From assembly GCA_016875025.1 (NCBI GenBank), contig VGSH01000008.1, positions 1-51,154 of the forward strand: a DNA stretch of 51,154 bases, given 5' to 3'. Under the pieces are notes generated by a model that was not told the origin of the DNA, ran no database searches, and was given only the letters and a program-made list of their open reading frames with translations. This document shows positions 32,833 through 51,154 of this stretch, in pieces. The first letter of the stretch is position 1. Each line of letters opens with the position of its first letter. The position numbers and the translations under genes were made by a program. Source of the DNA: Deltaproteobacteria bacterium. GTDB taxonomy: Bacteria; Desulfobacterota; WTBG01; CAIYCZ01; CAIRTM01.

Positions 32833-34180
32833 ATTTTTTGAGCCGGTATTTTTCGATTTTTTTATAGAGCGTCAGGCGGCTTATTTTTAAAATGGATGCA
32901 GCCTTCGCAATGTTGCCGCCGGTAGTGCGCAATATTTTTTTGATGTGGCCGCGCTCAACGTCTTCAAGCGATCCGGCCTCCTGCGCGTCATCACCGGCAG
33001 GCGCGGGCAGCGGGAACGAAAGGTCAGCCGGGGTAATCGTGGTGCCGCGCGCGCTGACCACGGCCCGCTCAATGGCGTTTCTCAGCTCGCGCACATTGCC
33101 GGGCCAGCTGTAGCGCTCAAGCAGCTCAATGGTCTCAGGGGCCATGTCCATGCCGCCTTTGTTCATGGCCAGGGAAAACTTGTTGACGAAAAAGCGTGCC
33201 AGGCGGGCGATGTCATCTCTGCGCTCACGCAGGGGCGGCAGGGTGATAGAAAAAACATTGAGCCGGTAGTAGAGGTCTTCGCGGAACGAGCCGCTGCGCA
33301 CGGCTGCTTCAAGATCCTTATTGGTGGCGCAGATAATGCGGAAGTCGACGCTGATGGTCTTGTCGCCTCCCAGGCGGCAGAACTGGCGTGTTTCGATCAC
33401 CCGCAGCAGATCCATCTGCATCTTCATGCCGATGTTGCCGATTTCATCCAGAAAGATGGTGCCCTTGTCGGCCATTTCCAGCTTACCGCGGCGCTGATAC
33501 AGTGCCCCGGTAAAGGCGCCTTTTTCATGGCCGAACAGTTCGCTTTCAAGCAGGCCTTCGGTATAGGCGCCGCAGTTGATGGTGATGATCGGAAAGTAGC
33601 GCCGGTTGCTGTTGGAGTGAATCGCCCGCGCGATCAGCTCCTTGCCGGTGCCGCTCTCGCCGCGGATCATGACGGTTGAATCGGTCGGCGCGACCGTGGC
33701 GACCTTGTCGAGCACGGCTTTGAGCTGATCGCTCTGGCCGACAATGTCGTCGGTCAGGTTCAGCTCCTCGATCTGGCTGCGCAGCTGGCGGTTTTCATAA
33801 TAGAGCCGGCGCTGCTCGACCGCGTTTCTGATCAGGTGGCCCATGTCATCAGGGTCGACCGGCTTCACGATATAGTCAAACGCGCCCTCCTTAAGCGCCT
33901 GTATGCTGGTGTCAACCGAGGCGAACGCGGTGATCATGATCGTGATGATGTCCTTGTCGATTTCCTTGATGCGCCGCTGCAGCTCAAGGCCGTCCATGCC
34001 CGGCATCTTGATGTCCAGCAGCACAATGTCCCAGGCGGCGTCCTGCAGCTTGCCCAGCGCTATCTGCGCATCAGCGGCGCTGTCGACCCGATAGCCGTCA
34101 AACTCAAACCATTTATGCAGCGCGTCGCGCACCGAGGCTTCATCATCGACGATGAGTATTCCGATATCAGATGGCTTCAT
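32831..34180 (-). CDS. NtrC-family sigma54-dependent response regulator
   Basis: A 449-residue activator with all three modules. The receiver domain has acidic residues D12/D13, phospho-acceptor D56 (LLDIKMPGMDG), T84 and K106. The AAA+ domain has Walker A GESGTGKE (174-181), the sigma54-contact GAFTGA (221-226) intact, and Walker B TIFLDE (241-246). The C-terminal Fis-like helix-turn-helix is at GGNIAKAASILKISRLTLYK. Starts at ATG with AAAGGAG upstream, 62 nt after the kinase gene. A sigma54-like site upstream of the transporter at 29730 is a candidate target. Confidence 0.95.
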   Translation of the reverse strand: MKPSDIGILIVDDEASVRDALHKWFEFDGYRVDSAADAQIALGKLQDAAWDIVLLDIKMPGMDGLELQRRIKEIDKDIITIMITAFASVDTSIQALKEGAFDYIVKPVDPDDMGHLIRNAVEQRRLYYENRQLRSQIEELNLTDDIVGQSDQLKAVLDKVATVAPTDSTVMIRGESGTGKELIARAIHSNSNRRYFPIITINCGAYTEGLLESELFGHEKGAFTGALYQRRGKLEMADKGTIFLDEIGNIGMKMQMDLLRVIETRQFCRLGGDKTISVDFRIICATNKDLEAAVRSGSFREDLYYRLNVFSITLPPLRERRDDIARLARFFVNKFSLAMNKGGMDMAPETIELLERYSWPGNVRELRNAIERAVVSARGTTITPADLSFPLPAPAGDDAQEAGSLEDVERGHIKKILRTTGGNIAKAASILKISRLTLYKKIEKYRLKK

Positions 34181-34242
34181 GATTGCTGGGGCTCCTTTTT
34201 CGATAATGTGTCACACCTGCCTGTGTTCAGGCCTCAGATTTT

Positions 34243-35685
34243 TTATGCCGATTCCGGCACGTGCCGCCTGGGCAGCCGGATGGTGAAGGTGGTGCCGCTG
34301 CCCGGATGAGAGTCGACCTTGACCGTGCCGGCATGCCGCCGCACAATGCCGTACACGGCGGCCAGCCCCAGCCCGAGGCTTTTATTGGATTCTTTGGTTG
34401 AAAAAAACGGCTCAAATATTTTATGCAGATTGGGCTCAGGGATGCCGCAGCCGAAATCACGAATGCGCAGGATGATATGATCGGGATCAGTGCAGTCGCT
34501 TGCAAGAATGATATCGCTGCCTTCGGTGGAGGCCTCTATGGCATTGACTATCAGCGCAACCATGATCTGCTGAATGGCGCCGGCATCACACTGCAGCACA
34601 TCGTCTCCCAGGTCAAGTTCTGTTTTGAGGTCGATTTTTTTCATCCGGGCGCTGTGGTCGATGACACGCGCGCTGACCGAGATTATTTCATTCAAGTGCG
34701 CGGGCCCGACATCGCCGACGCTCTGGCGCGCGAACTGCAGCAGGTTTTTGACGATGTTGCCGCAGCGTTTGGCCTCGTTTGCAATCAGGGTCAGATTCTC
34801 GCGGATAGTGTCTATGTGCTCAGTGCAGTTTTTTTGCTCGAGATAGCGTCCGGTCAGGCGCGCATACGACAGGATCCCTGCCAGGGGATTGTTGATTTCA
34901 TGGGCCACCATGGCAGAGAGTTTGCCCAGCGAGGCCATTTTTTCGGACATCGCCAGACTTGACTGGGTCTGCTGCAGCTCAGCCTCGGCTTCCAGCTGCT
35001 GCAGGTGCGCCTTGTAGCTGATGCTTAATATGCTGCCCATGAGCAGCATCATAATGAGCAGGATAATGCCTGAGAACAGAATGACGCTGCGGTTGATCGT
35101 CGCTATTTCAGCCTTGACGTCATCAATATAGATGCCGGTGCCGATGATCCAGCCCCAGGGCGCAAAGCCTTTCACGAATGAGAGTTTGGGCACGATATGA
35201 TAGATATTGTCGCGGGCCTGCCACTTGTAGTGCACGAATCCGGAGCCGTTTTTGCGAACAGTGTCCACGATTTCACGGAAGATGTATTTGCCGTCCGGGT
35301 CCTGGTAGTCAGTAACGTCCTGGCCGTTGAGATCATTGCGATAGGGGTGTATGACCATGCGCGGGTGCATGTCGTTGATCCAGAAGTAGTCCTTCATCTC
35401 GAGGCCGTAGTGCATGCTGCGTATCTGTTCGATGGCCTGCTGCTGGGCCTGCTCGCGCGTCAGCAGTCCGCCTCTTTCATCGTTTTCGAGCTTGGCCAGA
35501 ATGTTCCAGGCCGAGCGGGTCAGCTCCTGAATCATTTCGCGCTTGCGGTCCATGCTGTTTTTCTCAATCAGCGGGATCAGCATGAAAAATATGGCAAGAA
35601 TGAACAGGGAAATGGTTAAGCTTGTCGGAATGACGAATCGCAGGATGAAGGACTGCCAGTTGTAGGCGATACGTCTGGAAGGCAT
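34243..35685 (-). CDS. Cache-domain sensor histidine kinase
   Basis: A 480-residue membrane sensor paired with the NtrC-type regulator. TM1 spans about residues 15-41, TM2 about 200-222, and between them lies a periplasmic single-Cache (sCache_2-like) domain with KDYFWINDMHPRMVIHPYR. The cytoplasmic part has a coiled segment, the HisKA motif AHEINNPLAG (H262), N-box NAIEAS (N381), G1 DFGCGIP (D410) and FFSTKESNKSLGLGL. The start at 35685 (MPSRRIAYNW) is preferred: the frame is open to 35772, but its first codons lie inside a repeat element. Family precedent suggests small carboxylates as ligands, which is inference. Confidence 0.92.
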   Translation of the reverse strand: MPSRRIAYNWQSFILRFVIPTSLTISLFILAIFFMLIPLIEKNSMDRKREMIQELTRSAWNILAKLENDERGGLLTREQAQQQAIEQIRSMHYGLEMKDYFWINDMHPRMVIHPYRNDLNGQDVTDYQDPDGKYIFREIVDTVRKNGSGFVHYKWQARDNIYHIVPKLSFVKGFAPWGWIIGTGIYIDDVKAEIATINRSVILFSGIILLIMMLLMGSILSISYKAHLQQLEAEAELQQTQSSLAMSEKMASLGKLSAMVAHEINNPLAGILSYARLTGRYLEQKNCTEHIDTIRENLTLIANEAKRCGNIVKNLLQFARQSVGDVGPAHLNEIISVSARVIDHSARMKKIDLKTELDLGDDVLQCDAGAIQQIMVALIVNAIEASTEGSDIILASDCTDPDHIILRIRDFGCGIPEPNLHKIFEPFFSTKESNKSLGLGLAAVYGIVRRHAGTVKVDSHPGSGTTFTIRLPRRHVPESA

Positions 35686-35702
35686 CGGCTGAGACCTGAA
35701 GG

Positions 35703-35721
35703 CCGGCACGGCGAGTGCCGG
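35703..35721. repeat. Short hairpin upstream of the kinase start
   Basis: CCGGCAC and GTGCCGG form a perfect 7-bp stem around GGCGA, about 18 nt upstream of the preferred kinase start codon. It could influence access to the ribosome-binding region; no function is proven. Confidence 0.5.
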
Positions 35722-35731
35722 ATGTTTAGCA

Positions 35732-35865
35732 GGCTGTTGAAAAACGTCCACCTGCTGCGTTGCGCTCGTCATTCGTCACTACGGCGTACGGTAGGGGCAC
35801 GGCATGCCGTGCCCCTACAAAAAATGATTTTGCGCGCCTTGCATCTGAACGATTTTTGAACAGCC
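35732..35865. repeat. Palindromic intergenic repeat, copy A
   Basis: A 134-bp element with ends GGCTGTTGAAAAA and TTTTTGAACAGCC, which are inverted copies with one mismatch. Its centre is a perfect 28-bp palindrome from GTAGGGGCAC to GTGCCCCTAC (35790-35817), and the flanks between ends and centre are imperfectly complementary. It resembles a small non-coding mobile element (MITE-like). A second copy lies at 36832-36964 in the same orientation. It falls in the leader between the candidate promoter and the kinase gene. Confidence 0.88.
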
Positions 35866-36003: not shown

Positions 36004-36810
36004 TCAGGGCGCGTCACAGCCCAGATAACGCACGAGGCAGCGTGCCATGCTGAGATGGGCGCTTTCAGGTCCGCTGCCTGATGGCTGCTTTGTTTTTCCG
36101 CAGTCCGCGTCGCAGACAATAATTTTTACACCGGTGCGCCCGGGCAGGCTTGCTGAACGTGCGCCTGCGGGCACGAAAACGGCAGCCGGCGGATCGGGCG
36201 CGTCCAGCAGCGCGCGCGCAGCCGGTCCGTCAGCCGTGATCACCGCTGCTGCGGGCATGCTCATGGCGCAGAGGCGCGCAGCTGTTGCGGCGCAGTCCTC
36301 GGCGAGCTCAAGCAGCACCCAGCCATGATTGGCGTTCAGCTCAAGCAGGCGCAGGGCGGCCGTATGCAGCGAGTCGCGTGTGCAGCGCACATGCAGGGGT
36401 TTTTTTTCAGCTGTAAGCATTTCGCGCGCACGGCTCAAAACCGGTTCGCTGCCGGGTGAGCCGATAACAGCGCACGCGTTGATCTTATGCCGCCAGTAGC
36501 AGGCAAGATTCAGCAGGGCCTCAAGCGCATCATCGACCTCCACCACGATTTTACCCGGCCATTTTTTAACCACACCAGCGGTTTTCCCGCTTGATCGCGC
36601 GCACAGGACTCCTCCGGCACCCTTTTGCAAAGCCGCGTCGATATCGCGATGTCCGTCGGCAGTGTTCAGGGTGAGGGGCACAAACAAACAGCCTTGGGTG
36701 ACCGTGGCCGCGCTCACGCACACGCCGTTCAGCATGGTAAGGGCGCTGCCGGCTGCAAGCCTGCCGCTGGTTGCCTTGACAAGTTCATTGGGGATCAATC
36801 GTGCGCTCAT
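36004..36810 (-). CDS. Truncated MurF-like protein lacking the ATP-binding loop
   Basis: A 268-residue protein that follows MurF (UDP-MurNAc-tripeptide:D-Ala-D-Ala ligase) segment by segment. There is an N-terminal Mur domain with CLFVPLTLNTADGH and AALQKGAGGVL (about residues 41-69), a linker helix LEALLNLACYWRHKIN, and a central-domain start at AVIGSPGSEPVL (114-125) where MurF has its GTxGKTT loop. The Gly-Lys-Thr is gone. A later segment LLELAEDCAATAARL...AAAVITADGPA (166-197) matches MurF's ELG...GEI...AVITNIG region. The C-terminal substrate domain is missing (MurF is ~450 residues), so it cannot be an active ligase. The frame is intact. The gene is flanked by two copies of a palindromic repeat. 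Family assignment is by eye. Confidence 0.6.
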   Translation of the reverse strand: MSARLIPNELVKATSGRLAAGSALTMLNGVCVSAATVTQGCLFVPLTLNTADGHRDIDAALQKGAGGVLCARSSGKTAGVVKKWPGKIVVEVDDALEALLNLACYWRHKINACAVIGSPGSEPVLSRAREMLTAEKKPLHVRCTRDSLHTAALRLLELNANHGWVLLELAEDCAATAARLCAMSMPAAAVITADGPAARALLDAPDPPAAVFVPAGARSASLPGRTGVKIIVCDADCGKTKQPSGSGPESAHLSMARCLVRYLGCDAP

Positions 36811-37257: not shown

Positions 37258-40200
37258 ATGCGCCAGTTTGAAACAATCAGGAGTGCGCTTGCGGCAGTTT
37301 TGTTTGTATGTATTCTTTTGCCTGCGGCTCACGCTGGCACTCCCGTGCAACAGGTGACTGCTGCGCTGTCATGGCTTGAGCAGGCTCAGGACTCATTTGA
37401 CGGGCATTGGGGCCCGGATCCGGTTCTCGATACGGCGCTGGTACTGCAGGCCGCGCAGCTCTATCTCGGCAGCGGCCTGGATATTTCGACGGCTCAGAGC
37501 TATCTCAGCGCTCAGCAGCCTATTGCAACCGATTACCTGGCGCGGAAGATAATGGCCCTGGCCGATGACGCGCATGCAGTTCATCAGGACGTTGACGAAC
37601 TCCTTGATCAGCAGAACAGAGATGGAGGTTTCGGTTTTTCGGACGGGTATCCCAGCTCTGTAATTGACAGCATACTGGCGCTGGACGGGCTTGTTCTGGC
37701 GGGTGTTGATGGTGATCCCATCGCTTCGGCCCTTGGTTATCTCACTGACCGTCAGCACAATAATGGTGCTTTTTCCTGGCACGCAGTTGGACCGGATAGT
37801 TTTGATGTGACGTGCCGGGCGCTTATCGTCATGAACAGGCTGCGGGCACGCTATAACCTGTTGTCTTTTGCAGAGCGGGCGGCAGGCTATATCTCCGGGC
37901 ATCAGAACGCTGACGGCGGTTTCGGCGAGGATGGCAGCAGCGTTATTGAAACCGCTCTGGCGATTCTTGCTCTTCAGGCAGAAGGCGGTAAGGCTCAGTC
38001 CGTTTCCGGTGCGCGCGCCTTTCTGCTGAGTGTTCAGGATCCACGCAGCGGCAGCTGGAACGGCCGGGTTCGCGACACAGCGCTTGCGCTTGCAGCCCTG
38101 CATGCAAGCGCCGGCATCGACCTTCCGAATCTGCAGGTGCATTCCTCCGGCATCCGGCTGCAGCCGGCATATCCGGCCGCAGGGAATCAGGTTACGGTTA
38201 CCTGTGAGGTGCGCAATACCGGAAGCCGTGCGGCTGAAAACATAGAGATCGAGCTGTATCTGGGTGACCCGACAGCCGACGGGCAGTTTCTTGACAGCGG
38301 CGAGGTTGCATTGCTGGCAGCGGGCGGCAGCGCGAATGTTCAATTAGGCTTCATGCTGGGTCAGGAGCCGGGCCGGGCTGATCTGTATGCAGTCGTCGAC
38401 CCGCGTGAGCTTATTGCCGAGATCAGCACTGCCGACAATGTAGCGGTTAAAAGCCTGACTTCGGTCACTCTGCCTGACCTGACAATCACGGACATTGAGC
38501 TGAGCACATCCTCGCCGTCAGCCGGTGAGCCTTTTACTGTGTCGGCCACTGTTAAAAACCTCGGTGAAGCCGATGCCGGTCCTGTCACCGTGGGTGTGTA
38601 TGAGGGCGATCCGGCTACAAGCGCTCCCCTGCTTGAGGTGGCGCTCGGCAATGTCTGCGGCGGGTGCAGCGGACGGGCTGATTTCGATCTGACGCTGCCG
38701 GCCGGGGCCTATGGCTACGTGGTGTCGGTTTACGCAGGCCCCGGAATTGTTGAACAAAACTTCGCTAATAATGACAGCGCCTGCACGTTCACGGTTGTGC
38801 CGGGCGTGATTCAGGGTCTGGATCTTGCTGTTGAGCAAGCCGGCATTTCCTTTTTACCGGCCTGTCCGCGCGAAGATGAACCGCTATGCATTACTGCCGC
38901 AATCCTTAACCGGGGCGATATCGCTGCCCGCGATGCCGTGGTCGATATCTATGCCGTCGACGCACTGGGGGGCAGCACCCTTGTGCACACATTCAGCGGG
39001 GTCGATGTCGGCGAGGGTGTCAGCGCCAAACTGAGTTTTGACGGCGTCCGGCTTGAGGCTGGAATGTACACGATGTTTGTGCGCGTGAGCGCTTCACCGG
39101 TGCAGCAGGATATGGTGCCGGATAACAATATCGCTTCTAACACAGTGAACGTGCTTGGTGTTCAGGATGTCGTGGATCTCGCAGTCGATGATTTCAGCAT
39201 ATCGCCTGCCATGCCGCATGCCGGCGATCCCGTTATCGTCAGGTTCAGGATCAGCAATCACGGCAATGTCGGCCTTGCAGGCGTCACCTTCGGCGTGTTT
39301 GATGGCGATCCGCACAGCGGCGGCAGCCTGGTCCTTGATTCCCTCGCGACGATTGCCTGGCTCGGCGCGGGGCAGTCGCTGTACGCAAGCGGCGTGTTCG
39401 ACACTGCCGGCCGCGGCGGCGAGCAGACCCTGTACGTATTCGTAGATCCGGAAGAGAGCTTTGCCGAAGTGGATGAAGAGAACAATAGTGCCTCAGCCTC
39501 ATTTATGGTTGAGCACGATCCGGGGCCCGATCTCGCGATTATTGCGCACGGCCTTGAGTTTTCTCCGGCCAACCCGTCGATCGAAGACGACGTAACCATG
39601 TACGCGACGGTGTGCAATCATGGCTCCCGTCCGGTTGTGGAGCCTTTCGATATCGCCCTGTATGCCGGTCAGCCGCAGGCGGGCATGCAGCCGATTGCTT
39701 TCGCGACCTTTGACTCGCTGGAGGTGAACTCGTGCGCCCGCGTTGCTTTTTCAGCGCAGGCTGCGCTGCTTGCCGCATCGCAAAGTATTTTTGTGCATGC
39801 CGATTATCTGAACGCGGTTGCTGAAACAAATGAATATAACAATACAGTCACCATGGTCATACCGGTCAGCGCGCCCGATCTGGCAATAAGCGCTGATGAC
39901 CTTTCATCCGATCCCGCTTGTCTTCTGCCCGGAGAATCCTTCACACTGGATGCCGTTTTACGCAATATCGGTACGCATGATGCCCGCGATGTCGAGGCGG
40001 TTGTATACAGCGGACCGCCTGAGAGCAGTCCGGAGCTTTGCCGTGTGAGCCTGCCGCTTGTTGCCGCGGGCAGCAGCGCAACAGCCGCCTTTTCCATTTC
40101 CCTGCCGGCAGGCGCGCACACGCTGCATGTCGTGGTCGATCCGGGCGGTTTTGTCGCTGAATCCGGCACAGCCAATAACAGTGCGTCTATTACGGTAACC

Positions 40201-43200
40201 GTGGGGCTGCCGGATGAGGATCCCGTGCTCGACCTCGCGGCATCGCGTGTGCGTCTGAATTCAAACAGCCTGCCCGACAGCGCGGCAATCACCGTGCGTG
40301 TCAGCAACGCCGGCACCGTGGATGTTGATCCCGGTATAGATGTCGCCTTCTATAGCGGCGATCCGGCATCCGGCGCTATTCTGCTCGGTGTTGAACAGGC
40401 AGCCTCCGGGCTTGCTGCGGGCGCGTATGAAGATGTCGCGTTTACCTGGAACCACCCGGCTGAAGGAGAGTATCGACTGTTTGGCGTTGTTGACGACGAC
40501 GGAACCGGCCAGGGCCGGTTGACCGAGATTAATGAAATCAACAATATCGCCGTTGCAACGGTTACCATTACGTATTCACAGAACCAAAAGGATAGGGCGG
40601 TTTCACAGGGCGCGCAGTGGCTGGTAGAGCACCAGCACAGTCTGGGCGGATGGGAGGATGTTGCTCCCGCGCGGGCCAATGCTGCTGTGCTTCACGCGCT
40701 GCATGTTTCAGGCCTGCATCTCGATCCTGAGTTCATCGGCATGTATGCAGCAATTTTTCAGCGTGTTTTTGAAACGCAGGCAAGCAACGGCAGCTGGGAA
40801 AACAGCGTTCCTGCAACAGCAGATTCAGTCCTTGCTCTGCTTGCTGCTGGTGAGGACAACTCATCACCTGCAATCAGGAACGCGGTTATATGGTTGAAGA
40901 GCAAGCAGCAGGATGCCGGCGGGTGGAATAATGCGCCGCCTCAAACAGGGCATGCGGTTTGGGCACTGTTGGAGGCCGGCACAGGCAGGGATGATCCTTT
41001 CATAGCGAAGGCGCGTCAATGGCTGCTTGACAATTGTAACGCTGACGGGTTCTGGGCTTCGAAGACTGGAGAACCAAGCAGCCGCTGGGCTTTGCATTAC
41101 CCTGTTGTAGGCTTGTATGTGGCCTCTCATGGGAGCGACAGTGCCGCTCAGGCAGCGATTACAAAGGCGGTCAACTGGTATAAGGGAAACCGCAAGGGCA
41201 CTATTGATGAAACCCATGCATATCTCAATATGCTTTTCTTTACCGGAAGAAATGCAGGCGAGATAACGGCAACGATGAGTGCTCTTAAAAATTTACAGTC
41301 ATCCAACGGCGGCTGGGTTGAAGCCTCCCTGTCAAGCACGCCGCTTGAGGATCCCCGCATTACGTCCGAGGTTGTCATGAGTCTTTACCGGCACAGTCCA
41401 ACAGGCGGCGGGGCTGACATGCGAAAAGCGCACCGGTGGCTGAAGGCCATGATGACCGAGCCGAACGGGGACATGCCGTATCCGTATGATCAGGCCAGCC
41501 CCACGTCATCGGCCATGCTGGCATTGAATATCGTCAATGATCATGACGGATATAACGCACCAATCAAAGAGGCTCTTATGCGCTGTGTCAGCAGCCAGAT
41601 CAGTAACGGCAACTGGAACCCTGAGCTTTCCAAGGCCGCCCATCATCTTCTTGAAGCGGGTGCGGCAGTGCTCAGGGCGCTTGGTGAAACAGATATCAGC
41701 GCAACCGGCACAAGCAGCGCGATATCAAACGTGGTGTCATATCTTTTTGATAATCAGAACAGTGACGGCGGCTGGTTTAGCAGGGGCACTCCCTACACAG
41801 GCCCTTCGTATGTTAATAGTACCAATCTGTCGCTGCTGGGACTGCTGTCAAAAAATGTCGTTCTTACCGGAACCCAGCGCACCTGCGTACAAAAGGCAAT
41901 TACATGGCTGCTGCAGCAAAAGACCGGCTCGGCCAACTGGGAAACAATTGGATATACTGCCGAAATCGTAAAAATACTCGTCAGATTAGGAGGCTATCAG
42001 TCCGAGATCAATGGTGCTGTTGCCTGGCTGCGGCAGCGTCAGAATGCGGATGGCGGCTGGGGTGAATATGAAAGCACGGTGCCTGTTACTGCGCGTGTTC
42101 TGCTCGCGCTCATTGCGACCAATAACCAGGGTCCTGAAACCGCAAAAGCCGTTCAGTGGCTGCTGGCCGTGCAGAATGAAGATGGCGGCTGGCCCATTCT
42201 TGCCGGAATGTCAAACAGCAGCACGAACCCCACAGCCCTTGCCGTGCGCGCACTGGCCCTGGCCGAGTATACGCCGGGGCCGGAACTGACAATATCGTTT
42301 GACAAACCCTCGTATAAGCCCGGTGAAACGGTTACCGTAACGGTTGAGTCTAAAGACGATGCATACAACGTGCAGCAGGTCTCAGGCACCATCACTGAAT
42401 ATCAGAATGCCACCCGCAGCATCGCTTTTGCGAAAATCGGCAGGTTGTTTATCGGCACGCATGTCCTGAGCAGAGGCCATATCGCCGGAACCGATATCGT
42501 CAGTGTCGAAGCCCAGACCCTTGAGGGGGTTGCAGGATATGGTGTGAGCACTTTTGCAGTTGAAAATGTATCAGATCTCAAATGCGACCTGTCCGTTGCA
42601 GCCACTGATATCATGTTCAGCCCTGAGCTGCCCGACGAGGGCCGTATGGTGCTCATTGCAGCGCAGGTGCGCAATATCGGCCATGCAGTCTCCGGCGACA
42701 CCGTGGTCCGTTTTTTTAATGGTACGCAGCAGATCGACTCCGATCAGACGCTTGCCTCCCTTGCGCCCGGTGCCAGCGACATAATCTTTATGCAGTGGGA
42801 CACCCGTGGCTTTGAGGGCCGCAATTATATTCATGTTGTAGTCGATCCGCTCAATCAGGTCAATGATGTCAACTGGGTCAACAACCACGCGATCCGGCCC
42901 ATCGACGTTGCCCCGCGCAGCCTGCCTGACCTCGAGGTGCGCGATGCGGATATCAGCTTTGCAGACACGACTCCGGTTGAAGGCACACTGGTCAGCGTGT
43001 CAGCCGCTGTGCGCAATAATGGCGCTGCAGTCGACGGCGTTGTGGTGCATTTCTACGACGGCGAGATCTCGGATGATAGCCTGATAGCAAGCCGCATCAT
43101 CAATGAGATCGTGCCCCATGGCGGCAGCCGCACGGTAAGCGCATTGTTTGACACTGCCGGTCGAGCAGGCAGGTGCCGCATTATCGTGCAGGCTGATCCC

Positions 43201-45903
43201 CACACTATGATCAGGGAGCAGAATGAGGCCAACAACAAGGGCAGTGCTGAACTTGATGTGCAGTCCGGCGGACTTGGCCTCGAGCTGAGCCTTGAGCGTG
43301 AGAGCTATGTGCAGGCCGAGGATGTCCTCGCCGGCGCTGCTGTTACAAACAGCTTCGATCATGAGCGCGTGGTAACGCTTGATCTTGCAGTGTATGATCC
43401 GTCCGGCGCTCTGTTTGCTCAGGTTGCGCGGGCCACGGTTATTGTTGTGCCGCCCGGCGGCATGGTCGTTATCGATGACCTTGTCTGGAACACCGCCAGC
43501 GCGCCGGCCGGGCAGTGGAGTGTTGTCGTAACCCTGTTTGAAGACGGTCAGCGCCGCGCTGAAGACGAGGCCGCCTTTGTGATCCTGGCCGACAGAACTA
43601 TCAGAGCCGATATCAGCACGGAGCGCCGGCTGTATTATGATCATGCACAGGTGCGTATCAGCACAGTGCTGCAGAGCTTTTCACCGAATTATGCCTTTAC
43701 CGGCCTGAGCGCGTTTGTCGAGCTGCTCAGCCCCGGGGGTGATGTTCTCTATGCGGATGAGCACACCGTTGCAGTGCTGCCGCCGCTTGCTGGCCGCTCA
43801 TGGGAGCAGGCATGGAACACTGCGCTGCATGCCCCCGGCCTCTATACATTGAATCTGAGCATTGAGCAGGACGAGGACGGTACCCCGGTTGCATCCGACA
43901 GCACTCAGTTCACCATTGCGCGCAGCGCGGGCGGGGGCAGGGGCCTTATCGGCCATGTGAGCGCTGAACCGGAGCGGGTGCATCCGGGCCAGGATGTGCT
44001 GTTTACCTGGGGCATCAGCGCTGTCGGCAAAGTTATTCCCGATGAAGCGCAGGTGTTCATCAGCGCCGTCAACAGAGCAACGCAGGAAGTGGCGCTGGTG
44101 CTTGAGGATTCCTGTTATTTCGACGAGGGGAGCTGCAGCGGCACGCTTGTGCTTGACAGCAGCGCTCTTGCCTGCGGAGACTATGTGCTTCTTCTGGCGG
44201 CACAAACCGACGGTGCAATGCACAACCTTGCCTTTGCCCCGGTTGCGGTTCTTAACCGCTGCCCTGTAGCCGCGGCAGGCGTTGATGTGCTTGCCCATGT
44301 GGGTGATAGCGTACAGCTTAACGGGTCGGGCAGCTACGATCCTGACGGCCACAGCCTGACATACAGCTGGGTGATCGCATCGGCCCCGCCGGAGAGTTTT
44401 TCCGGGCTTGTCGGCGCTGATCAGTATAATCCAACGCTTGTGATCGATCGCCACGGCACCTATGAACTGCGCCTGAGCGTTTCCGACGGCATCTGCCAAA
44501 GCCCGAGCAACAGTGTGCTCGTCACAACTGACAACCGCCCGCCGGTTGCAGTAGTCGGCGAAAGCCTGCTCATTGATGCGGGTGAAACAGTGCAGCTTGA
44601 TGCCTCGGCAAGCCATGACCCGGACGGCGATGTGATCGAGCGCTACGAGTGGATTATGGTTGTCCGGCCGGCGGGCAGTGTAGCCGAACTTTCCGGCCGT
44701 TTTGTTCCAGATCCGCTTTTCACGACAGATCTGCCGGGAACATACCGGTTGCAGCTCACTGTGCGCGACTTTGAATATGCAAGCGACCCTGTTGAACTCG
44801 AGGTCACGACGCGCAACCGCCGCCCGGTTGCCGACAGCGGGCCTGACCGGAAGCTAAACGCAGCCGATGCTGTGCAGCTTGACGCATCCGCCAGCTTTGA
44901 TCCGGATGGTGATTTCCTCACCTGGCGCTGGTCAATATTAAGCGCGCCTGATGGCAGCACAGCTGTGCTTAATGACAGCACACTGATTAATCCCGTATTT
45001 ACGGCAGATAAAGCCGGTGCGTACATTGTTCAGCTTATCGTCAATGACGGTGAGATGGACAGCATACCCGACACCTGCACCATTACAATCCGCGCTCTGT
45101 CTGAATGCGCCGATGATCTGGGCATTGCGCAGGGCTACAGCATTTTTGCGCTTGGCGCGTTGAGTGCGCAGCATGCAGTCATCTCAGGCCGTATTGCCGC
45201 TGGCGGTAATGCGGAGCTGCATACTGTCGTCATGGCAAATCAGGTGCCGCGCGGAGCGCCTTCAGAGCCTGTGCTCTTATCCGGCGGCGATATTGTCTAC
45301 AGCAGCGGCGTGGTTCACCGGGGCAGCATCATTGCAGCCGGCAGTGTTGACGGCGTTTCTTGCGTGGTGCGGCGCACCATGGCGTGCGGCGCAACGGTCA
45401 CGGGTAACGCAGAGCTTCCCTTTGATTTCGCGCAGGAGTCATCGCGTTTGCGTCTGTTTTCGGCGCGTCTTGGCGGACTTGCGCCCACCGGAACCGCATC
45501 ATCATGTGCCGCTATTTTAACTTTGCGCGGCGACGGCTCAAGCCCCATCCAGCTTTTCAGTATCAGTGCTCAGCAGCTGCGCAGAGCGCGCAGCCTGCAC
45601 TTGCGGGATATCCCGCGCACTGCAACAGTTATCATCAATATCAGCGGGGAGCAGGCCGAAGTGTCGCATGTCGGCATGGCCATTCCGGGCTGGCTGCGCG
45701 GACAGGTGCTGTTCAATTTTTTTGAAGCGCGTTCGCTTGAGTTTACAGCTGGTGCTGTCAAGGGCAGCGTGCTCGCTCCGTTTGCCGAGCTCACCAATAG
45801 CAGCGGCATTATTTCAGGAACCGTTATTGTTGATTCCTGGCAGGGCTCCATGAATGTCGGCCATGAGCCGTTCATTGGCACGCTGCCTGAATGTGAACCA
45901 TAG
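37258..45903 (+). CDS. Giant secreted protein: alpha-toroids, CARDB repeats, PKD-like domains, choice-of-anchor A
   Basis: A 2,881-residue exported protein with a Sec signal peptide (residues 1-26, ending PAAHAG). Domains by eye: a first squalene-cyclase/prenyltransferase-type alpha-toroid (~30-290, repeats such as QNRDGGFGF and QNADGGFGE); seven CARDB-type beta-sandwiches (~292-1106, each with a PDLAI-like start and an NN-x-A end); a second, larger toroid (~1108-1671, repeats such as QNSDGGWF and QNADGGWGE); an Ig-like domain; two more CARDB (~1778-2002); further beta-rich sequence; three PKD-like domains (~2336-2611, with SYDPDG and SASHDPDGD); and a choice-of-anchor-A domain (~2620-2879) with SGRIAAGGNAEL and LEFTAGAVKGSVLAPFAELT. 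The cyclase DxDD catalytic motif and a CGEQ thioester were not found, so the toroids are probably binding modules. No sorting motif follows the anchor domain. It lies 1 nt from the next gene. Confidence 0.88.
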   Translation: MRQFETIRSALAAVLFVCILLPAAHAGTPVQQVTAALSWLEQAQDSFDGHWGPDPVLDTALVLQAAQLYLGSGLDISTAQSYLSAQQPIATDYLARKIMALADDAHAVHQDVDELLDQQNRDGGFGFSDGYPSSVIDSILALDGLVLAGVDGDPIASALGYLTDRQHNNGAFSWHAVGPDSFDVTCRALIVMNRLRARYNLLSFAERAAGYISGHQNADGGFGEDGSSVIETALAILALQAEGGKAQSVSGARAFLLSVQDPRSGSWNGRVRDTALALAALHASAGIDLPNLQVHSSGIRLQPAYPAAGNQVTVTCEVRNTGSRAAENIEIELYLGDPTADGQFLDSGEVALLAAGGSANVQLGFMLGQEPGRADLYAVVDPRELIAEISTADNVAVKSLTSVTLPDLTITDIELSTSSPSAGEPFTVSATVKNLGEADAGPVTVGVYEGDPATSAPLLEVALGNVCGGCSGRADFDLTLPAGAYGYVVSVYAGPGIVEQNFANNDSACTFTVVPGVIQGLDLAVEQAGISFLPACPREDEPLCITAAILNRGDIAARDAVVDIYAVDALGGSTLVHTFSGVDVGEGVSAKLSFDGVRLEAGMYTMFVRVSASPVQQDMVPDNNIASNTVNVLGVQDVVDLAVDDFSISPAMPHAGDPVIVRFRISNHGNVGLAGVTFGVFDGDPHSGGSLVLDSLATIAWLGAGQSLYASGVFDTAGRGGEQTLYVFVDPEESFAEVDEENNSASASFMVEHDPGPDLAIIAHGLEFSPANPSIEDDVTMYATVCNHGSRPVVEPFDIALYAGQPQAGMQPIAFATFDSLEVNSCARVAFSAQAALLAASQSIFVHADYLNAVAETNEYNNTVTMVIPVSAPDLAISADDLSSDPACLLPGESFTLDAVLRNIGTHDARDVEAVVYSGPPESSPELCRVSLPLVAAGSSATAAFSISLPAGAHTLHVVVDPGGFVAESGTANNSASITVTVGLPDEDPVLDLAASRVRLNSNSLPDSAAITVRVSNAGTVDVDPGIDVAFYSGDPASGAILLGVEQAASGLAAGAYEDVAFTWNHPAEGEYRLFGVVDDDGTGQGRLTEINEINNIAVATVTITYSQNQKDRAVSQGAQWLVEHQHSLGGWEDVAPARANAAVLHALHVSGLHLDPEFIGMYAAIFQRVFETQASNGSWENSVPATADSVLALLAAGEDNSSPAIRNAVIWLKSKQQDAGGWNNAPPQTGHAVWALLEAGTGRDDPFIAKARQWLLDNCNADGFWASKTGEPSSRWALHYPVVGLYVASHGSDSAAQAAITKAVNWYKGNRKGTIDETHAYLNMLFFTGRNAGEITATMSALKNLQSSNGGWVEASLSSTPLEDPRITSEVVMSLYRHSPTGGGADMRKAHRWLKAMMTEPNGDMPYPYDQASPTSSAMLALNIVNDHDGYNAPIKEALMRCVSSQISNGNWNPELSKAAHHLLEAGAAVLRALGETDISATGTSSAISNVVSYLFDNQNSDGGWFSRGTPYTGPSYVNSTNLSLLGLLSKNVVLTGTQRTCVQKAITWLLQQKTGSANWETIGYTAEIVKILVRLGGYQSEINGAVAWLRQRQNADGGWGEYESTVPVTARVLLALIATNNQGPETAKAVQWLLAVQNEDGGWPILAGMSNSSTNPTALAVRALALAEYTPGPELTISFDKPSYKPGETVTVTVESKDDAYNVQQVSGTITEYQNATRSIAFAKIGRLFIGTHVLSRGHIAGTDIVSVEAQTLEGVAGYGVSTFAVENVSDLKCDLSVAATDIMFSPELPDEGRMVLIAAQVRNIGHAVSGDTVVRFFNGTQQIDSDQTLASLAPGASDIIFMQWDTRGFEGRNYIHVVVDPLNQVNDVNWVNNHAIRPIDVAPRSLPDLEVRDADISFADTTPVEGTLVSVSAAVRNNGAAVDGVVVHFYDGEISDDSLIASRIINEIVPHGGSRTVSALFDTAGRAGRCRIIVQADPHTMIREQNEANNKGSAELDVQSGGLGLELSLERESYVQAEDVLAGAAVTNSFDHERVVTLDLAVYDPSGALFAQVARATVIVVPPGGMVVIDDLVWNTASAPAGQWSVVVTLFEDGQRRAEDEAAFVILADRTIRADISTERRLYYDHAQVRISTVLQSFSPNYAFTGLSAFVELLSPGGDVLYADEHTVAVLPPLAGRSWEQAWNTALHAPGLYTLNLSIEQDEDGTPVASDSTQFTIARSAGGGRGLIGHVSAEPERVHPGQDVLFTWGISAVGKVIPDEAQVFISAVNRATQEVALVLEDSCYFDEGSCSGTLVLDSSALACGDYVLLLAAQTDGAMHNLAFAPVAVLNRCPVAAAGVDVLAHVGDSVQLNGSGSYDPDGHSLTYSWVIASAPPESFSGLVGADQYNPTLVIDRHGTYELRLSVSDGICQSPSNSVLVTTDNRPPVAVVGESLLIDAGETVQLDASASHDPDGDVIERYEWIMVVRPAGSVAELSGRFVPDPLFTTDLPGTYRLQLTVRDFEYASDPVELEVTTRNRRPVADSGPDRKLNAADAVQLDASASFDPDGDFLTWRWSILSAPDGSTAVLNDSTLINPVFTADKAGAYIVQLIVNDGEMDSIPDTCTITIRALSECADDLGIAQGYSIFALGALSAQHAVISGRIAAGGNAELHTVVMANQVPRGAPSEPVLLSGGDIVYSSGVVHRGSIIAAGSVDGVSCVVRRTMACGATVTGNAELPFDFAQESSRLRLFSARLGGLAPTGTASSCAAILTLRGDGSSPIQLFSISAQQLRRARSLHLRDIPRTATVIINISGEQAEVSHVGMAIPGWLRGQVLFNFFEARSLEFTAGAVKGSVLAPFAELTNSSGIISGTVIVDSWQGSMNVGHEPFIGTLPECEP

Positions 45904-45904
45904 T

Positions 45905-46645
45905 ATGACTGAGCCTCTTATACCAAAGCACGGCGGCTACCGCGGCCTGAAAAATTTTCAGGTCGCCCGGATCGCGCATGACGTAACCGTGCGGTTTTGC
46001 GAGCGCTATATTGACAAACGCAGCCGAACGCGCGACCATATGGTGCAGGCTGCGCGCTCAGGCGTGCAAAACATTGCTGAGGGCAGCCAAGCTTCCGGCA
46101 CTTCGAAAAAAATGGAATTAAAGCTCACCAGTGTGGCGCGCGCAAGCCTTGAGGAACTGCGGGTTGACTATGAGGATTTCCTGCGCCAGAGGAGCCTGCC
46201 GCTCTGGCAGCGTGCTGATGCGCGCAGGCAGGCCCTTGTTGACCGTCGCTGCACAACTGCCGATGAATTTGCGCAGTGGGCGCGGGAAGTGCACAGCAAT
46301 GGACACTGTGGACAAGGTGGACCCAGTGGACATTTTGAAAAAACTATTGATAAAGGTTTTTCGTCCACCACGTCCACAAAGTCCCCTACGTCCACCCCCG
46401 GCTTTTCCGAAATTGCCGCCAACGGCGCCCTTGTGCTCCTGGCCGTTGCCTGCGCGCTGCTTGACCGGCAGCTTGCTGCTCTGGCACAGGCTTTTGAAAA
46501 CCAAGGCGGTTTCACCGAGCGCCTCTACCGCGTACGATCACAGCACCGGTCCACATCGTCCACACGGTCCACCGCGTCCACGCCGTCCACAACGTCCACC
46601 GTGTCCACCCAAAAACCAACAAAAGGCGATCCATTTTCAGACTAA
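45905..46645 (+). CDS. Four-helix-bundle 'suffix' domain protein
   Basis: A 246-residue protein. The N-terminal part (about residues 1-110: IPKHGGYRGLKNFQVAR, DKRSRTRDHMVQAARSGVQN, IAEGSQASGTSKKMELKL) matches the S23-type four-helix-bundle family with the 'suffix' architecture. A hypervariable linker (~129-167) follows, then the suffix domain (~168-212, NGALVLLAVACALLDRQLAA and GGFTERLYRVR), then an (x-Ser-Thr) repeat tail. The ATG at 45905 is 1 nt after the preceding stop; the frame is open from 45854. Its function is unknown; relatives are often encoded inside rRNA genes or in variable loci. The linker and tail are encoded by phased hexamer repeats. Confidence 0.85.
   Translation: MTEPLIPKHGGYRGLKNFQVARIAHDVTVRFCERYIDKRSRTRDHMVQAARSGVQNIAEGSQASGTSKKMELKLTSVARASLEELRVDYEDFLRQRSLPLWQRADARRQALVDRRCTTADEFAQWAREVHSNGHCGQGGPSGHFEKTIDKGFSSTTSTKSPTSTPGFSEIAANGALVLLAVACALLDRQLAALAQAFENQGGFTERLYRVRSQHRSTSSTRSTASTPSTTSTVSTQKPTKGDPFSD
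46308..46395. repeat. Phased GTGGAC / GTCCAC repeats in the linker
   Basis: GTGGAC occurs at 46308, 46317 and 46326, and its reverse complement GTCCAC at 46363, 46372 and 46390 (46381 reads GTCCCC), all at 9-nt intervals. The two groups are complementary and could fold together around a ~31-nt loop. Confidence 0.9.
46549..46608. repeat. 9-nt tandem repeat, seven GTCCAC units
   Basis: GTCCAC recurs at 46549, 46558, 46567, 46576, 46585, 46594 and 46603, exactly every nine bases, with only the three spacer bases varying. In frame it encodes seven x-Ser-Thr triplets. It shares its core with the linker repeats about 150-240 nt upstream. Confidence 0.95.
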
Positions 46646-46657
46646 AGGAGTTTTTTA

Positions 46658-49600
46658 ATGAAAAAGCTGTTTCTGCTTACAGGTGTCATTCTTTCTGCTT
46701 GTCTGGTGTTTGTTCCGTGGCTGTTCGCCCAGGGCATGTTCAATCCCGGCACGTATGAACGTTTCGAGCAGCTGGGCCAAGAGTTGTCAAGCCACATGCA
46801 GCAGCTCGACCGGCAACTGGAAGATGTGCAGACGCGCCGCACGGATAAAGCCCGCTCAGCGTTCTTGAAAAGTGCCGGCCGGTTTGCCGGCCGCGCCGGC
46901 GAGCTTAACCGGATGCTTGAGAAGATGGAGCAGGAGCTGCTTGCAAACGGAGTCGATGATATTTTTGTGGAGCGCCACCGGGCGCAGTCAGCCGCCCTGC
47001 AGAAGCGTTTTGCAACCATGGCAGAGAGCATCAGAAACGGCGACATTGACGATATCATCGAGCGGGGCATGCTCAGCGGCCGCAACAAGCGCCGCAAGGC
47101 CATGGAGCACTCGCGCGCACAAGGGCGCGACGCCCGGAAGCGCAAAACTTCCGGCGAAATTGTCAAGCCCAAAGGCCGCGAGCTGACCAGGGCAGAGATA
47201 GACAACTTTAACTCGCCCCGCCCCAGCATTGGCCTGCTCTCAGAGAACGGCACCTTTACAATGGTAAAATTCGATTCCAATGACTCCCTGCCCGCCGGGC
47301 AGCCACAACATGCGCTGCTTTCTCCTGTTGCGGCCTGGGACCTGGATGTGCCCCGAAACGTGCGGCCCATTCAGGTTGCCGGCCTTTCCACGGTTCACGG
47401 TCTTGTACGTCAGGCAACGATTGCCGCAATTGCGCCTCCGGTTGCCGCTGATCTGCTGGAGGATGAGCTGGGCGATGTAGTGTTTACCGCCTCCATCCGG
47501 GCGCTTGCCGACAGACTTGGCAAAAACCCGATACGTATATACGAGTGGGTTAAAAACACAATCGACTTTCAGCCCTACCGGGGCAGCCTCAAAGGGTCCG
47601 CACAGACGCTTGCCGAAGGCTGCGGCAATGATGTTGATATCGCCTCGCTTCTGATAGCCCTGTTGCGCTATTCGGGCTATCCGGCCCGCTACGCCGAGGT
47701 CCGCGCAATTGTTGACATTGATCGCGCAATGCAGTGGCTGGGGGTGAAGTCGCCTGAAATGGTGGGCTACTACCTTTCAACCGGCGACATCGGCAATGTC
47801 GAGGACCTCTATCGCGGCAGCGCAGTCGCGCAGTCCAAATTCCAGCACACCTGTGTCGAAGTGTATCTGCCCTACGCTGATTATCGCGGCACCGAAGAGA
47901 GCGAACGGCATAAACTGTGGGTGCCGCTTGCCCCGGCTTTCAAGCAGTACACAAGCACCGCCGGGGCGATACATGACCCGGATCTGGGATTTGATGCTGA
48001 ACAGTTCATCCAGAGTCTTGATCAGTTCAGCAGCATCGCCGACAGCGGCCTGGTTGATATCGACAGTGCTTCGTTTCAGGATTTCATGACAACAGCCACG
48101 GCGGATTACCAGGCACAGCTGCAGGACTATCTGGACGCTCATCCTGACATGAAGCTGCGGGATTTTTACGGCAATGATGAAGTCGCGCAGGAGACATTTC
48201 CGATTCTGCCGATAACGCTGCCCTTTGAGACCGACCCGGCGCATTACCGGCCCTACAGCGCTGTTCCCCTGGAAGAGCATCATCAGGTGTGCGTGCAGCT
48301 TTCCTACTGGGGCGTTGATCTGGATATCGAGCTTGAAACGCTTGAAATTGACTATCACGCGCCCACCTCGCTGGTGGCAGGCCAGCGCCTGGTGCTGTCC
48401 TATGTGCCCTCAACGAGTGAAGACTATAAAACCCTTGCCAGATATACAGGCACATTTTTTGAGATACCCTGCTACATGATCTACATGCGCCCGCAACTGC
48501 GCCTGAACGGTCGCCTGGTTGCGGAGAACCTTGGCAAGGATGCAGAGATATCCATGGGCCTTGAGGAGACCCTGCGCGTGTCAATCGTCCGGCCGGGCGA
48601 GGACGTCAAAAACCCGTCCCGCACAAGCGATTACGTCACCACAGTCGGCGATCATACCGCGATTGTGCTTGGCCTTGGCCGGGGCAGTTCAGAAAACATC
48701 ACCGCGGCAATTGCGCGGTTTGGCGGAGCTCTGGATGAGCGTACCAAAGAGATTGACCGTCTGCTGGGCGAGCAGCTGCACATCACCGGCAGTTCCTATT
48801 TTTATCAGCTCGATACGCACGCTGATCTGATCGCCCGGCAGCTGGGCGTGCGCTGGTTTCGCAACCCGTCGGATGTTCGCGTTGCCCGGCACCTGAAGGT
48901 GTCCTATCTTTTCGATGTATGGCCCGTGCGCATCACTGAGACCAATATCCGGGTTGATCTTTCCGAGCGGGTGCAGGCAGTGCCGCAGGATCCGGACTGG
49001 AACCTGCGCGACGCTTTTCTGCGCGCTGAGAGCATGCAGGGGTCGGTGTTCGAGCATTTGGTGCTGCAGCAGCTGTTCCGGCAGGAGTCCGTTTCAGCCG
49101 TGAAGCTTGTGGCTGAGGCCGTGAACAGCGGCGTGCCGCTGTATCAGTTCACGCAGGATATGGAGAGCTTTGACCTCTCCCCGCTGCAGCTTGAGGCCGA
49201 AGACCTTGAAATCATAAGACGTGAACTCACCGAATACGGGCAGGACGTGCTTGTTCCCGCCGCGCGCATCGATGTCGGCACCTTTACCGGCGTGGGCATC
49301 ATATCGACAACGCCGCCCGGCAATCCTCTGGGGCCTTACCGCATGGGCTATTTAATCAGCCTCAAGGGCGCTGATCCGTACGTCATCGATGGCGGGCAGA
49401 TTGTCGAAGAGATCGATACGTGGAACCGGGATTTTGTCGATCCTGACTACCGCGACTGGATACAGGTTGCAGGCCTTCTCTCCGACGCTGCAACCGCAAT
49501 AATTACCAATTCCGAGTCGATCCGCGCAGGCAATGTGCCTGTCAACACGCTCATTCGCGGCATTGCCCAGAATGTCATGGCGCTGCAGCTGGCGCAAATT

Positions 49601-51154
49601 CAGTCAATGGGTGTGGGCGGCATCGGTTTCACCCTGGCGGGCGCCATGGGCCAGATCGGCGCCATGTACCAGGCCCGCGACAGCCTGAATGAATTCATGA
49701 ACGACACCTGGATACTCTATATCGACTATGAGAACGAGTTGTACAACTGGGAGAATTACTACTTTCCCGCAATGGACAATGGCGAGCGCACGGTCAAGTA
49801 CGCGCTCATTAATCTGAACGGCTTCGGCGTGAGCGGCCAAACGCCCGCTATTACATCGACCAACCCGGACTTCGAGCTGGTTGGACAACCCGTGCCCACC
49901 GCCGGTACTCTGGGCGAGGGTTACTTTACCTTCCGCATGCATAATGCGGACAGTCTTATGCCGGGCGATAGAATACCTGTTACCCTCTCAATCCAGTCGC
50001 CTGAGGGCCGCGATGTGCGCACCACGGCCACGTTTCTCGCAGCCCCGTGCCGTCTGCAGAACATTTATATCGACGCGCAGGATGACAGAAGCTCCTATCC
50101 GCTCATGCCGGGAGCAACAGTTTCAATACACGCCGATGAGCCCTATGAGGGCATGGAGCTTGAATGGGCGATTGATTACGAGAGGACCTCACCCGGTATT
50201 TTTGGCAGCATCATAGCGCAGAAGGAAAACAGCTGCTGGCTGTCTATCGATGAGAACACCCGTCTTGAGGGCAGCGGGTATATAGTTCTGAAAGTAAAGG
50301 ATGCGAACATTCCGGGCTGTGAAATTACCCGCGCCATTCTCGTGGGATGCGAGTCCTGCTCGCAGGGCGGTGGCTGCCCGGACGGCTCGCTTAAGTGTGT
50401 TGATATCCAGCAGGGTATTGATTTTAAGATCAGTTTGGGCAGGGCAGCGGGCGGCATGAGCGCCGGGTCGCTCTATATTCAGGCTGATAAGCTGCGCCCG
50501 GATGCCGCAAAGACCAAATCTTTAGATGCCGTCGGCGAGCATATTGGCGCGGCCCTGGGGGTAGAGTCCCTGGCACAAGGGCTTGAAATTGTGTATGCGG
50601 CCTCAGGTGATTTCTCATCCGAAATCTACGATGTCAACGAGCTCTACTCCAAAGATACGCTGCGCCAGATTGTTGCGCCTGAGGCTTTCATTGATATCCT
50701 GAGCACTGATGAGTATTCCTACCAGATACGTTTTTATCCGCCCTCGGCACGGGGCGAGAAAAATGATGAGGGTATTTACGAGCTCAACTCCGGCGCTGCC
50801 CCGACCGGGCTGTGGACGATTCGCAACCAGAGCGCATCCGTTGATGTGTGCGAAAGCCTGCTGATCACGGAAAACCGCGGCAATGTGGTAAAGAGCTACG
50901 AATACCAACACCAGGCAGGCTCTAATCTCTGGAGGCTCATCAAGGGCGAGAGCGATCAGGTGATAGAGGTCCAGACCACCGCCCTTGGCAGAAACGAGTG
51001 GGTCGAGGTACGCACGGAAAAGGACAGCCAGGGCCGCATTGCATCCAAAAACAGCACGCTGTACCGCAAGCATGCCTGGGGCCGGGCCGTGAAGGAGCAA
51101 ACAATTGATCCGGATGCGGCCCGTCTCACCACCCGCACGCAGCACGATCCGACT
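46658..51154 (+). CDS. Exported transglutaminase-like / RHS-type giant protein, 3' end beyond the window
   Basis: An uninterrupted frame of 1,499 codons from ATG (GGAG 8 nt upstream) to the window's last base. The N-terminus (MKKLFLLTGVILSAC...WLFAQ) is an export signal; LSAC could be a lipobox, but the hydrophobic stretch continues, so cleavage after LFA is equally possible. A helical region follows, then a transglutaminase-like core (~262-445): GSAQTLAEGCGNDVDIASLL, RYSGYPARYAEV, HTCVEVYLPYAD and WVPLAPAFK. The usual nucleophile Cys position reads Asp (D325; a Cys lies at 322), His is kept (H397) and the Asp position reads Ala (A425), so activity is doubtful. From about residue 1255 the sequence (DIQQGIDFKISLGRAAGGMS) resembles the start of an RHS/YD-repeat shell. 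It closes the putative three-gene operon. Confidence 0.8.
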   Translation, partial: MKKLFLLTGVILSACLVFVPWLFAQGMFNPGTYERFEQLGQELSSHMQQLDRQLEDVQTRRTDKARSAFLKSAGRFAGRAGELNRMLEKMEQELLANGVDDIFVERHRAQSAALQKRFATMAESIRNGDIDDIIERGMLSGRNKRRKAMEHSRAQGRDARKRKTSGEIVKPKGRELTRAEIDNFNSPRPSIGLLSENGTFTMVKFDSNDSLPAGQPQHALLSPVAAWDLDVPRNVRPIQVAGLSTVHGLVRQATIAAIAPPVAADLLEDELGDVVFTASIRALADRLGKNPIRIYEWVKNTIDFQPYRGSLKGSAQTLAEGCGNDVDIASLLIALLRYSGYPARYAEVRAIVDIDRAMQWLGVKSPEMVGYYLSTGDIGNVEDLYRGSAVAQSKFQHTCVEVYLPYADYRGTEESERHKLWVPLAPAFKQYTSTAGAIHDPDLGFDAEQFIQSLDQFSSIADSGLVDIDSASFQDFMTTATADYQAQLQDYLDAHPDMKLRDFYGNDEVAQETFPILPITLPFETDPAHYRPYSAVPLEEHHQVCVQLSYWGVDLDIELETLEIDYHAPTSLVAGQRLVLSYVPSTSEDYKTLARYTGTFFEIPCYMIYMRPQLRLNGRLVAENLGKDAEISMGLEETLRVSIVRPGEDVKNPSRTSDYVTTVGDHTAIVLGLGRGSSENITAAIARFGGALDERTKEIDRLLGEQLHITGSSYFYQLDTHADLIARQLGVRWFRNPSDVRVARHLKVSYLFDVWPVRITETNIRVDLSERVQAVPQDPDWNLRDAFLRAESMQGSVFEHLVLQQLFRQESVSAVKLVAEAVNSGVPLYQFTQDMESFDLSPLQLEAEDLEIIRRELTEYGQDVLVPAARIDVGTFTGVGIISTTPPGNPLGPYRMGYLISLKGADPYVIDGGQIVEEIDTWNRDFVDPDYRDWIQVAGLLSDAATAIITNSESIRAGNVPVNTLIRGIAQNVMALQLAQIQSMGVGGIGFTLAGAMGQIGAMYQARDSLNEFMNDTWILYIDYENELYNWENYYFPAMDNGERTVKYALINLNGFGVSGQTPAITSTNPDFELVGQPVPTAGTLGEGYFTFRMHNADSLMPGDRIPVTLSIQSPEGRDVRTTATFLAAPCRLQNIYIDAQDDRSSYPLMPGATVSIHADEPYEGMELEWAIDYERTSPGIFGSIIAQKENSCWLSIDENTRLEGSGYIVLKVKDANIPGCEITRAILVGCESCSQGGGCPDGSLKCVDIQQGIDFKISLGRAAGGMSAGSLYIQADKLRPDAAKTKSLDAVGEHIGAALGVESLAQGLEIVYAASGDFSSEIYDVNELYSKDTLRQIVAPEAFIDILSTDEYSYQIRFYPPSARGEKNDEGIYELNSGAAPTGLWTIRNQSASVDVCESLLITENRGNVVKSYEYQHQAGSNLWRLIKGESDQVIEVQTTALGRNEWVEVRTEKDSQGRIASKNSTLYRKHAWGRAVKEQTIDPDAARLTTRTQHDPT

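What the first reader, a model, noticed from the sequence alone, without database searches (positions are those of the whole stretch)
37258..45903. 2,881-residue protein with two alpha-toroids and an anchor-A end without a visible anchor
Two squalene-cyclase-like toroids of different size are spaced by seven CARDB domains and followed by two more, three PKD-like domains and a choice-of-anchor-A domain. The toroids lack cyclase DxDD and complement-type CGEQ motifs, which points to binding rather than catalysis. The anchor-A domain is normally followed by a sorting signal, yet the protein ends a few residues later.
Basis: partly seen in the sequence, partly recalled or inferred. Interest (0 to 1): 0.66.

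Follow-up and report, generated by a model that had tools for sequence, protein, structure and literature searches.

The report
Toroid adhesin beside an RHS toxin
A giant secreted bacterial protein carries three ring-shaped, non-enzymatic squalene-cyclase-like domains on a long stalk with a probable carbohydrate-binding tip, and in several bacterial families its gene lies beside a gene resembling toxins that bacteria use against each other, so it is probably the binding partner of such a toxin.

Summary
The 2,881-aa ORF is real and has a full-length relative in the same genus (70% identity). Segment 28-290 is a single alpha6/alpha6 toroid. Segment 1107-1672 is not one bigger toroid: its model has 24 helices and matches the two-barrel fold of squalene-hopene cyclase, with one barrel apparently inserted in the other, so the protein has three toroids. 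No DxDD or CGEQ motif occurs. Domain counts hold, except that one of the nine CARDB units is below Pfam's cut-off. The C-terminal domain is a complete choice-of-anchor-A/adhesive domain. No sorting signal follows it in any of three family members, and those genomes lack exosortase; elsewhere in the phylum 7 of 8 such domains end in PEP-CTERM. The missing anchor is therefore lineage-consistent, and in Acanthamoeba this domain is a cellulose-binding lectin. The main new point is the neighbour: a secreted inactive-transglutaminase protein of the type that heads RHS polymorphic toxins. Toroid and transglutaminase genes lie together at 14 of 15 testable loci in seven families. The nearest relative's RHS protein ends in a Tle3 phospholipase domain. 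I read the protein as a fibrillar-adhesin-like companion of a contact toxin. The pairing is well supported; the mechanism is inferred.

The parts
37258..45903 (+). giant secreted protein, 2,881 aa
   Evidence: 70% full-length relative in G001
37258..37335 (+). signal peptide (residues 1-26), the only clear TM-like stretch; no clear lipobox
   Evidence: hydropathy scan; cleavage site inferred
37339..38127 (+). toroid 1 (residues 28-290): single alpha6/alpha6 barrel, 12 helices
   Evidence: AF2 pLDDT 89.6; squalene-hopene cyclase barrel Z 28.3, rmsd 2.2, 253 aa
38125..40542 (+). seven CARDB units (six over the Pfam cut-off, one weak)
40576..42273 (+). toroids 2 and 3 (residues 1107-1672): two-barrel module like squalene-hopene cyclase, apparently nested
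   Evidence: AF2 pLDDT 79.9, 24 helices; 2sqc Z 28.9, rmsd 6.9, 456 aa
42271..42573 (+). MG2 / bait-region-like beta segment (sub-threshold)
42565..43266 (+). two CARDB units
43255..44262 (+). about three unassigned Ig-sized units
   Evidence: no Pfam family over cut-off
44239..45102 (+). three PKD domains
45118..45879 (+). choice-of-anchor-A / pAdhesive_15 domain (residues 2621-2874), flanked by Cys2617 and Cys2879
   Evidence: Cys positions; disulphide inferred
46658..51154 (+). downstream secreted protein, cut by the contig end: inactive transglutaminase domain at about 47522-47872; RHS repeats seen in the relatives' full-length versions, not in the visible window part

Best explanation
The protein is a secreted, fibrillar-adhesin-like binding protein that works as the companion of the RHS-type protein encoded next to it. 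Shown by sequence and model: it is one long exported chain with one single and one double cyclase-fold toroid, none carrying cyclase catalytic motifs, a stalk of about nine CARDB, three PKD and other Ig-sized units, and a C-terminal adhesive domain with no sorting signal. Shown: toroid genes of this type lie beside inactive-transglutaminase genes in seven families. Inferred: the toroids are ligand-binding heads (peptide, lipid or glycan), the C-terminal domain binds a polysaccharide or neighbouring-cell surface, and the protein holds or targets the RHS toxin at the cell contact, perhaps by docking its inactive transglutaminase domain.
For: Fold. Catalytic motif absent. Domains. No sortase/exosortase in own genome. 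Adjacency of toroid and transglutaminase genes in G000, G001, G002, G003, G005, G008 and, outside the family, G034 (two loci), G324, G266, G313, G249, G292, G219. The two were sought separately over the same 395 genomes: 14 of 15 genomes with this toroid are among 26 with the transglutaminase (hypergeometric 7e-18; outside the family 7 of 8, 2e-9), and the chance of all six outside families being within 12 kb is about 1e-13. Partner identity: catalytic Cys replaced in all aligned members, RHS repeats and RHS core in relatives, Tle3 phospholipase tip in G001, different tips in G003 and G004. Inactive transglutaminase followed by RHS is a described polymorphic-toxin layout (PMC3482391). An Acanthamoeba Jonah lectin with a choice-of-anchor-A domain binds cellulose (PMC6541295).
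Against: No direct evidence of a physical or functional interaction. The window's own RHS part and tip lie beyond the contig end, and the 1,499 visible residues gave no RHS hit. In G004 the two genes are on different contigs and its transglutaminase protein shows no RHS core motif. In G023, G075 and G012 a transglutaminase gene occurs with no toroid found. Gene order and the C-terminal domain differ between lineages. How the protein crosses and stays at the outer membrane is unknown. Ligands of the toroids are unknown.
Confidence: 0.45

Rival explanations
1. Ordinary fibrillar adhesin or extracellular-matrix protein that attaches cells to polysaccharide; its neighbourhood with an RHS gene reflects a shared regulon of surface proteins, not joint action.
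For: Stalk plus adhesive domain layout; anchor-A domain protein is a cellulose-binding lectin in Acanthamoeba (PMC6541295); about half of a training set of fibrillar adhesins lack a recognised anchor (PMC9210967).
Against: Adjacency recurs in seven families with gene order changed and unrelated stalks and tips.
Confidence: 0.3
2. Scavenging receptor: the toroids capture a cofactor or lipid (B12-like compound, isoprenoid, hopanoid), as the toroid of transcobalamin does.
For: Cyclase-type barrels; extracellular bacterial toroids of the transcobalamin type are known (PMC1796856).
Against: No SLBB/DUF4430 domain, which pairs with the toroid in that clade, was detected; the toxin-type neighbour is unexplained.
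Confidence: 0.15
3. Macroglobulin/complement-like protease trap or covalent binder, with the toroid as thioester domain.
For: TED_complement over its cut-off at 1471-1667; MG2 and bait-region-like segment right after the double toroid; TED structures among fold matches.
Against: No CGEQ thioester; cyclases score better than TED; MG2 and bait hits below cut-off.
Confidence: 0.05
4. Secreted enzyme of the cyclase or (alpha/alpha)6 glycosidase/epimerase fold with an unrecognised active site.
For: Such enzymes are among the fold matches.
Against: DxDD absent and the aligned column is LEAG; only about 10% identity to the glycosidases.
Confidence: 0.05

Closest known systems
Squalene-hopene cyclase and class II terpene cyclases (beta-gamma fold)
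   Same: Same single- and double-toroid folds with QW-like repeats; about 16-24% identity on structure alignment
   Different: Secreted, in a 2,881-aa stalked protein; DxDD absent
Inactive-transglutaminase RHS polymorphic toxins (Zhang et al. 2012, PMC3482391)
   Same: The neighbouring gene has signal peptide and inactive transglutaminase; relatives' versions add RHS repeats, RHS core and variable tip
   Different: A linked toroid-bearing partner does not appear in that paper (search for squalene, toroid, CARDB found nothing; the held text is cut at 300,000 characters)
Choice-of-anchor A family (TIGR04215 / PF20597), including Acanthamoeba Jonah lectins
   Same: Full-length domain over cut-off
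   Different: No PEP-CTERM or other sorting tail; C-terminal on a giant toroid/CARDB/PKD protein
Fibrillar adhesins (PMC9210967)
   Same: Very long, Ig-like stalk, adhesive terminal domain
   Different: Toroid head after the signal peptide, no recognised anchor, Gram-negative host
Bacterial transcobalamin-type toroid-SLBB surface proteins (PMC1796856)
   Same: Secreted toroid fused to extracellular domains
   Different: No SLBB/DUF4430 domain found; toroid closest to cyclases

Membership tests
Squalene-hopene / class II terpene cyclase (enzyme) | alpha6/alpha6 toroid fold | tested here: met
Squalene-hopene / class II terpene cyclase (enzyme) | catalytic DxDD motif | tested here: not met
Complement/A2M thioester (TED) family | CGEQ thioester | tested here: not met
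Complement/A2M thioester (TED) family | TED fold as closest match | tested here: inconclusive
   TED chains listed, cyclases rank higher
Choice-of-anchor A (TIGR04215) | full-length domain over curated cut-off | tested here: met
   171 bits vs 29, positions 1-255
PEP-CTERM / exosortase substrate | PEP-CTERM tail on the protein and exosortase in the genome | tested here: not met
   bare C-terminus; no exosortase hit
LPXTG / sortase substrate | sortase in the genome | tested here: not met
Fibrillar adhesin | long stalk of repeated Ig-like units plus adhesive domain | tested here: met
Fibrillar adhesin | cell-surface attachment | not testable with these tools
   no anchor seen; localisation needs experiment
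RHS polymorphic toxin (neighbour) | inactive transglutaminase after signal peptide | tested here: met
RHS polymorphic toxin (neighbour) | RHS repeats, RHS core and variable C-terminal toxin | tested here: inconclusive
   contig ends in the window gene; met in G001 (RHS core, Tle3), and RHS core found in G003 and G219
Transcobalamin-type SLBB proteins | SLBB/DUF4430 domain | tested here: not met
   no Pfam hit at E 0.1

The most novel reading that the evidence does not exclude
A previously undescribed two-protein contact-toxin system: a non-catalytic cyclase-toroid protein with exchangeable stalk and tip acts as receptor-binding or display partner for inactive-transglutaminase RHS toxins.
Probability: 0.35. 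Interest if true: 0.75.

Novelty: new variant of a known kind. Interest (0 to 1): 0.6.

Why it matters
For RHS toxins that appear to leave the cell by the general secretory route, how they find and dock on their targets is poorly understood. A conserved partner made of an inactive cyclase fold plus an adhesive tip would be a concrete, testable candidate. It also adds a secreted, apparently non-enzymatic use of the squalene-cyclase fold.

Tried and rejected
Anti-phage defence library: no hit. The WXG100 hit of the neighbour is below cut-off and was not taken as a type VII signal. Five small secreted single-toroid proteins (320-370 aa frames, E about 1e-23) were set aside as a different group. 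A toroid protein in the phylum of a Labilithrix genome (G582, the only one in 331 genomes) has no transglutaminase within 31 kb upstream, but its downstream side lies off the contig. G286's 5,917-aa toroid ORF fills its contig, so linkage there is untestable. Literature searches for a toroid/CARDB/RHS link found none.

Full report
Observation. The frame 37258-45903 (+) is open from ATG for 2,881 codons. A second genome of the same genus encodes a full-length relative at 70% identity, and five more genomes of the same family encode relatives of up to 4,093 residues or parts of them. The window is a whole contig of the genome; named relatives are Thermodesulfobacteriota metagenome assemblies.

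Toroids. AlphaFold2 on residues 22-300 (three sequences) gives 12 helices at pLDDT 89.6. It matches the catalytic barrel of squalene-hopene cyclase at Z 28.3, rmsd 2.2 over 253 residues, 24% identity. Residues 1107-1683 (four sequences) give 24 helices at pLDDT 79.9, pTM 0.71. The best matches are two-barrel cyclases: 2sqc Z 28.9 over 456 residues (rmsd 6.9, so the barrels are probably oriented differently) and drimenyl diphosphate synthase Z 28.5 over 433 (rmsd 5.4). Single-barrel cyclases align 277-292 residues spread over model positions 1 to 567, which indicates that the first and last helices share one barrel and the other is inserted, as in squalene-hopene cyclase. That nesting is inferred from the aligned ranges.

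No catalysis. DxDD and CGEQ are absent from the whole protein, and in a sequence alignment the DxDD column of four cyclases falls on LEAG in the double toroid.

Stalk and tip. CARDB: six of seven units between the toroids and both after the second pass the cut-off; the third is weak. Residues 1672-1772 weakly resemble MG2 and bait-region domains. Residues 2000-2330 match nothing over cut-off. Three PKD domains and a full-length choice-of-anchor-A domain follow.

The missing anchor. In 395 genomes of the phylum the domain scores over cut-off in 11. Outside this family, 7 of 8 proteins end in PEP-CTERM. Within the family all three end bare, each with a cysteine near the end. Exosortase is not found in those three genomes and is found in the three PEP-CTERM genomes tested; sortase is not found in the window's genome. 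Other family members end in an unassigned C-terminal segment instead of anchor-A (no Pfam hit in that part). The bare end is thus consistent within the lineage and is unlikely to be a truncation. In Acanthamoeba a protein with this domain is an abundant cellulose-binding cyst-wall lectin (PMC6541295), so the domain can be read as the adhesive tip.

The neighbour. The next large gene (46658 to the contig end) encodes a signal peptide and a transglutaminase-like domain. The usual catalytic Cys position is Asp, Ala or another non-Cys residue in every aligned member; the window protein also has Ala for the catalytic Asp. Relatives' versions carry RHS repeats and the RHS core. In the sister genome the protein ends in a Tle3 phospholipase domain (64.9 bits, cut-off 27), followed by a 117-aa hydrophobic ORF that could be an immunity protein (inferred). 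The tip in G003 looks unrelated and has no Pfam hit. Inactive transglutaminase plus RHS is a described layout of polymorphic toxins, with a suggested role in anchoring by peptide binding (PMC3482391).

Linkage. A toroid profile and the transglutaminase query were run separately over the same 395 genomes. Toroids at E of 4e-27 or better occur in 15 genomes, 14 of which also have the transglutaminase (26 genomes at E about 1e-13 or better). Of 15 testable toroid loci, 14 lie within about 6 kb of a transglutaminase gene; the exception is G004, whose copies are on different contigs. Seven families are represented. Chance estimates: 7e-18 for co-occurrence, 2e-9 outside this family, 1e-13 for proximity with one locus per outside family. 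These are rough: they ignore relatedness beyond family level, the toroid profile was built partly from the linked loci, and the cut-offs were set after seeing the data. In most linked proteins the toroid comes soon after the signal peptide, while the stalk and the far domain vary: CARDB, carboxypeptidase-regulatory-like, FG-GAP propeller, dockerin, F5/8 type C.

Reading. The two proteins share a plan: export signal, inactive enzyme-fold head, long repeat region, variable end. The simplest account is a display or targeting partner for the toxin. The pairing is shown; the interaction, the ligands and the route to the surface are not.

Noticed in passing
window 45905-46645 (+): A four-helix-bundle protein with the TIGR04258 suffix (70.4 bits, cut-off 40) lies between the toroid and transglutaminase genes in this genus only; its likely start falls one base after the toroid gene's stop.
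   Followed up: partly
window 36004-36810 (-): ORF matching only the N-terminal half of MurF (59 bits against a cut-off of 288.6): a fragment or a divergent protein.
   Followed up: no
window 32831-35772 (-): Sigma-54-type response regulator and histidine kinase near the toroid gene, with similar genes beside it in G001; below the cut-off of the PEP-CTERM regulator family (416 vs 502.6).
   Followed up: no
L178 2942-7144 (+): A 1,401-aa protein with IgGFc_binding (273 bits) and MG2 domains sits between the toroid and transglutaminase genes in G249.
   Followed up: no
L213 351-18104 (-) and G292:C16: Very long toroid ORFs: 5,917 aa in G286 and an 8,231-aa open frame in G292.
   Followed up: partly
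L173: G324 carries two toroid ORFs and two transglutaminase ORFs interleaved in 14 kb, with WD40-like propeller genes between.
   Followed up: partly
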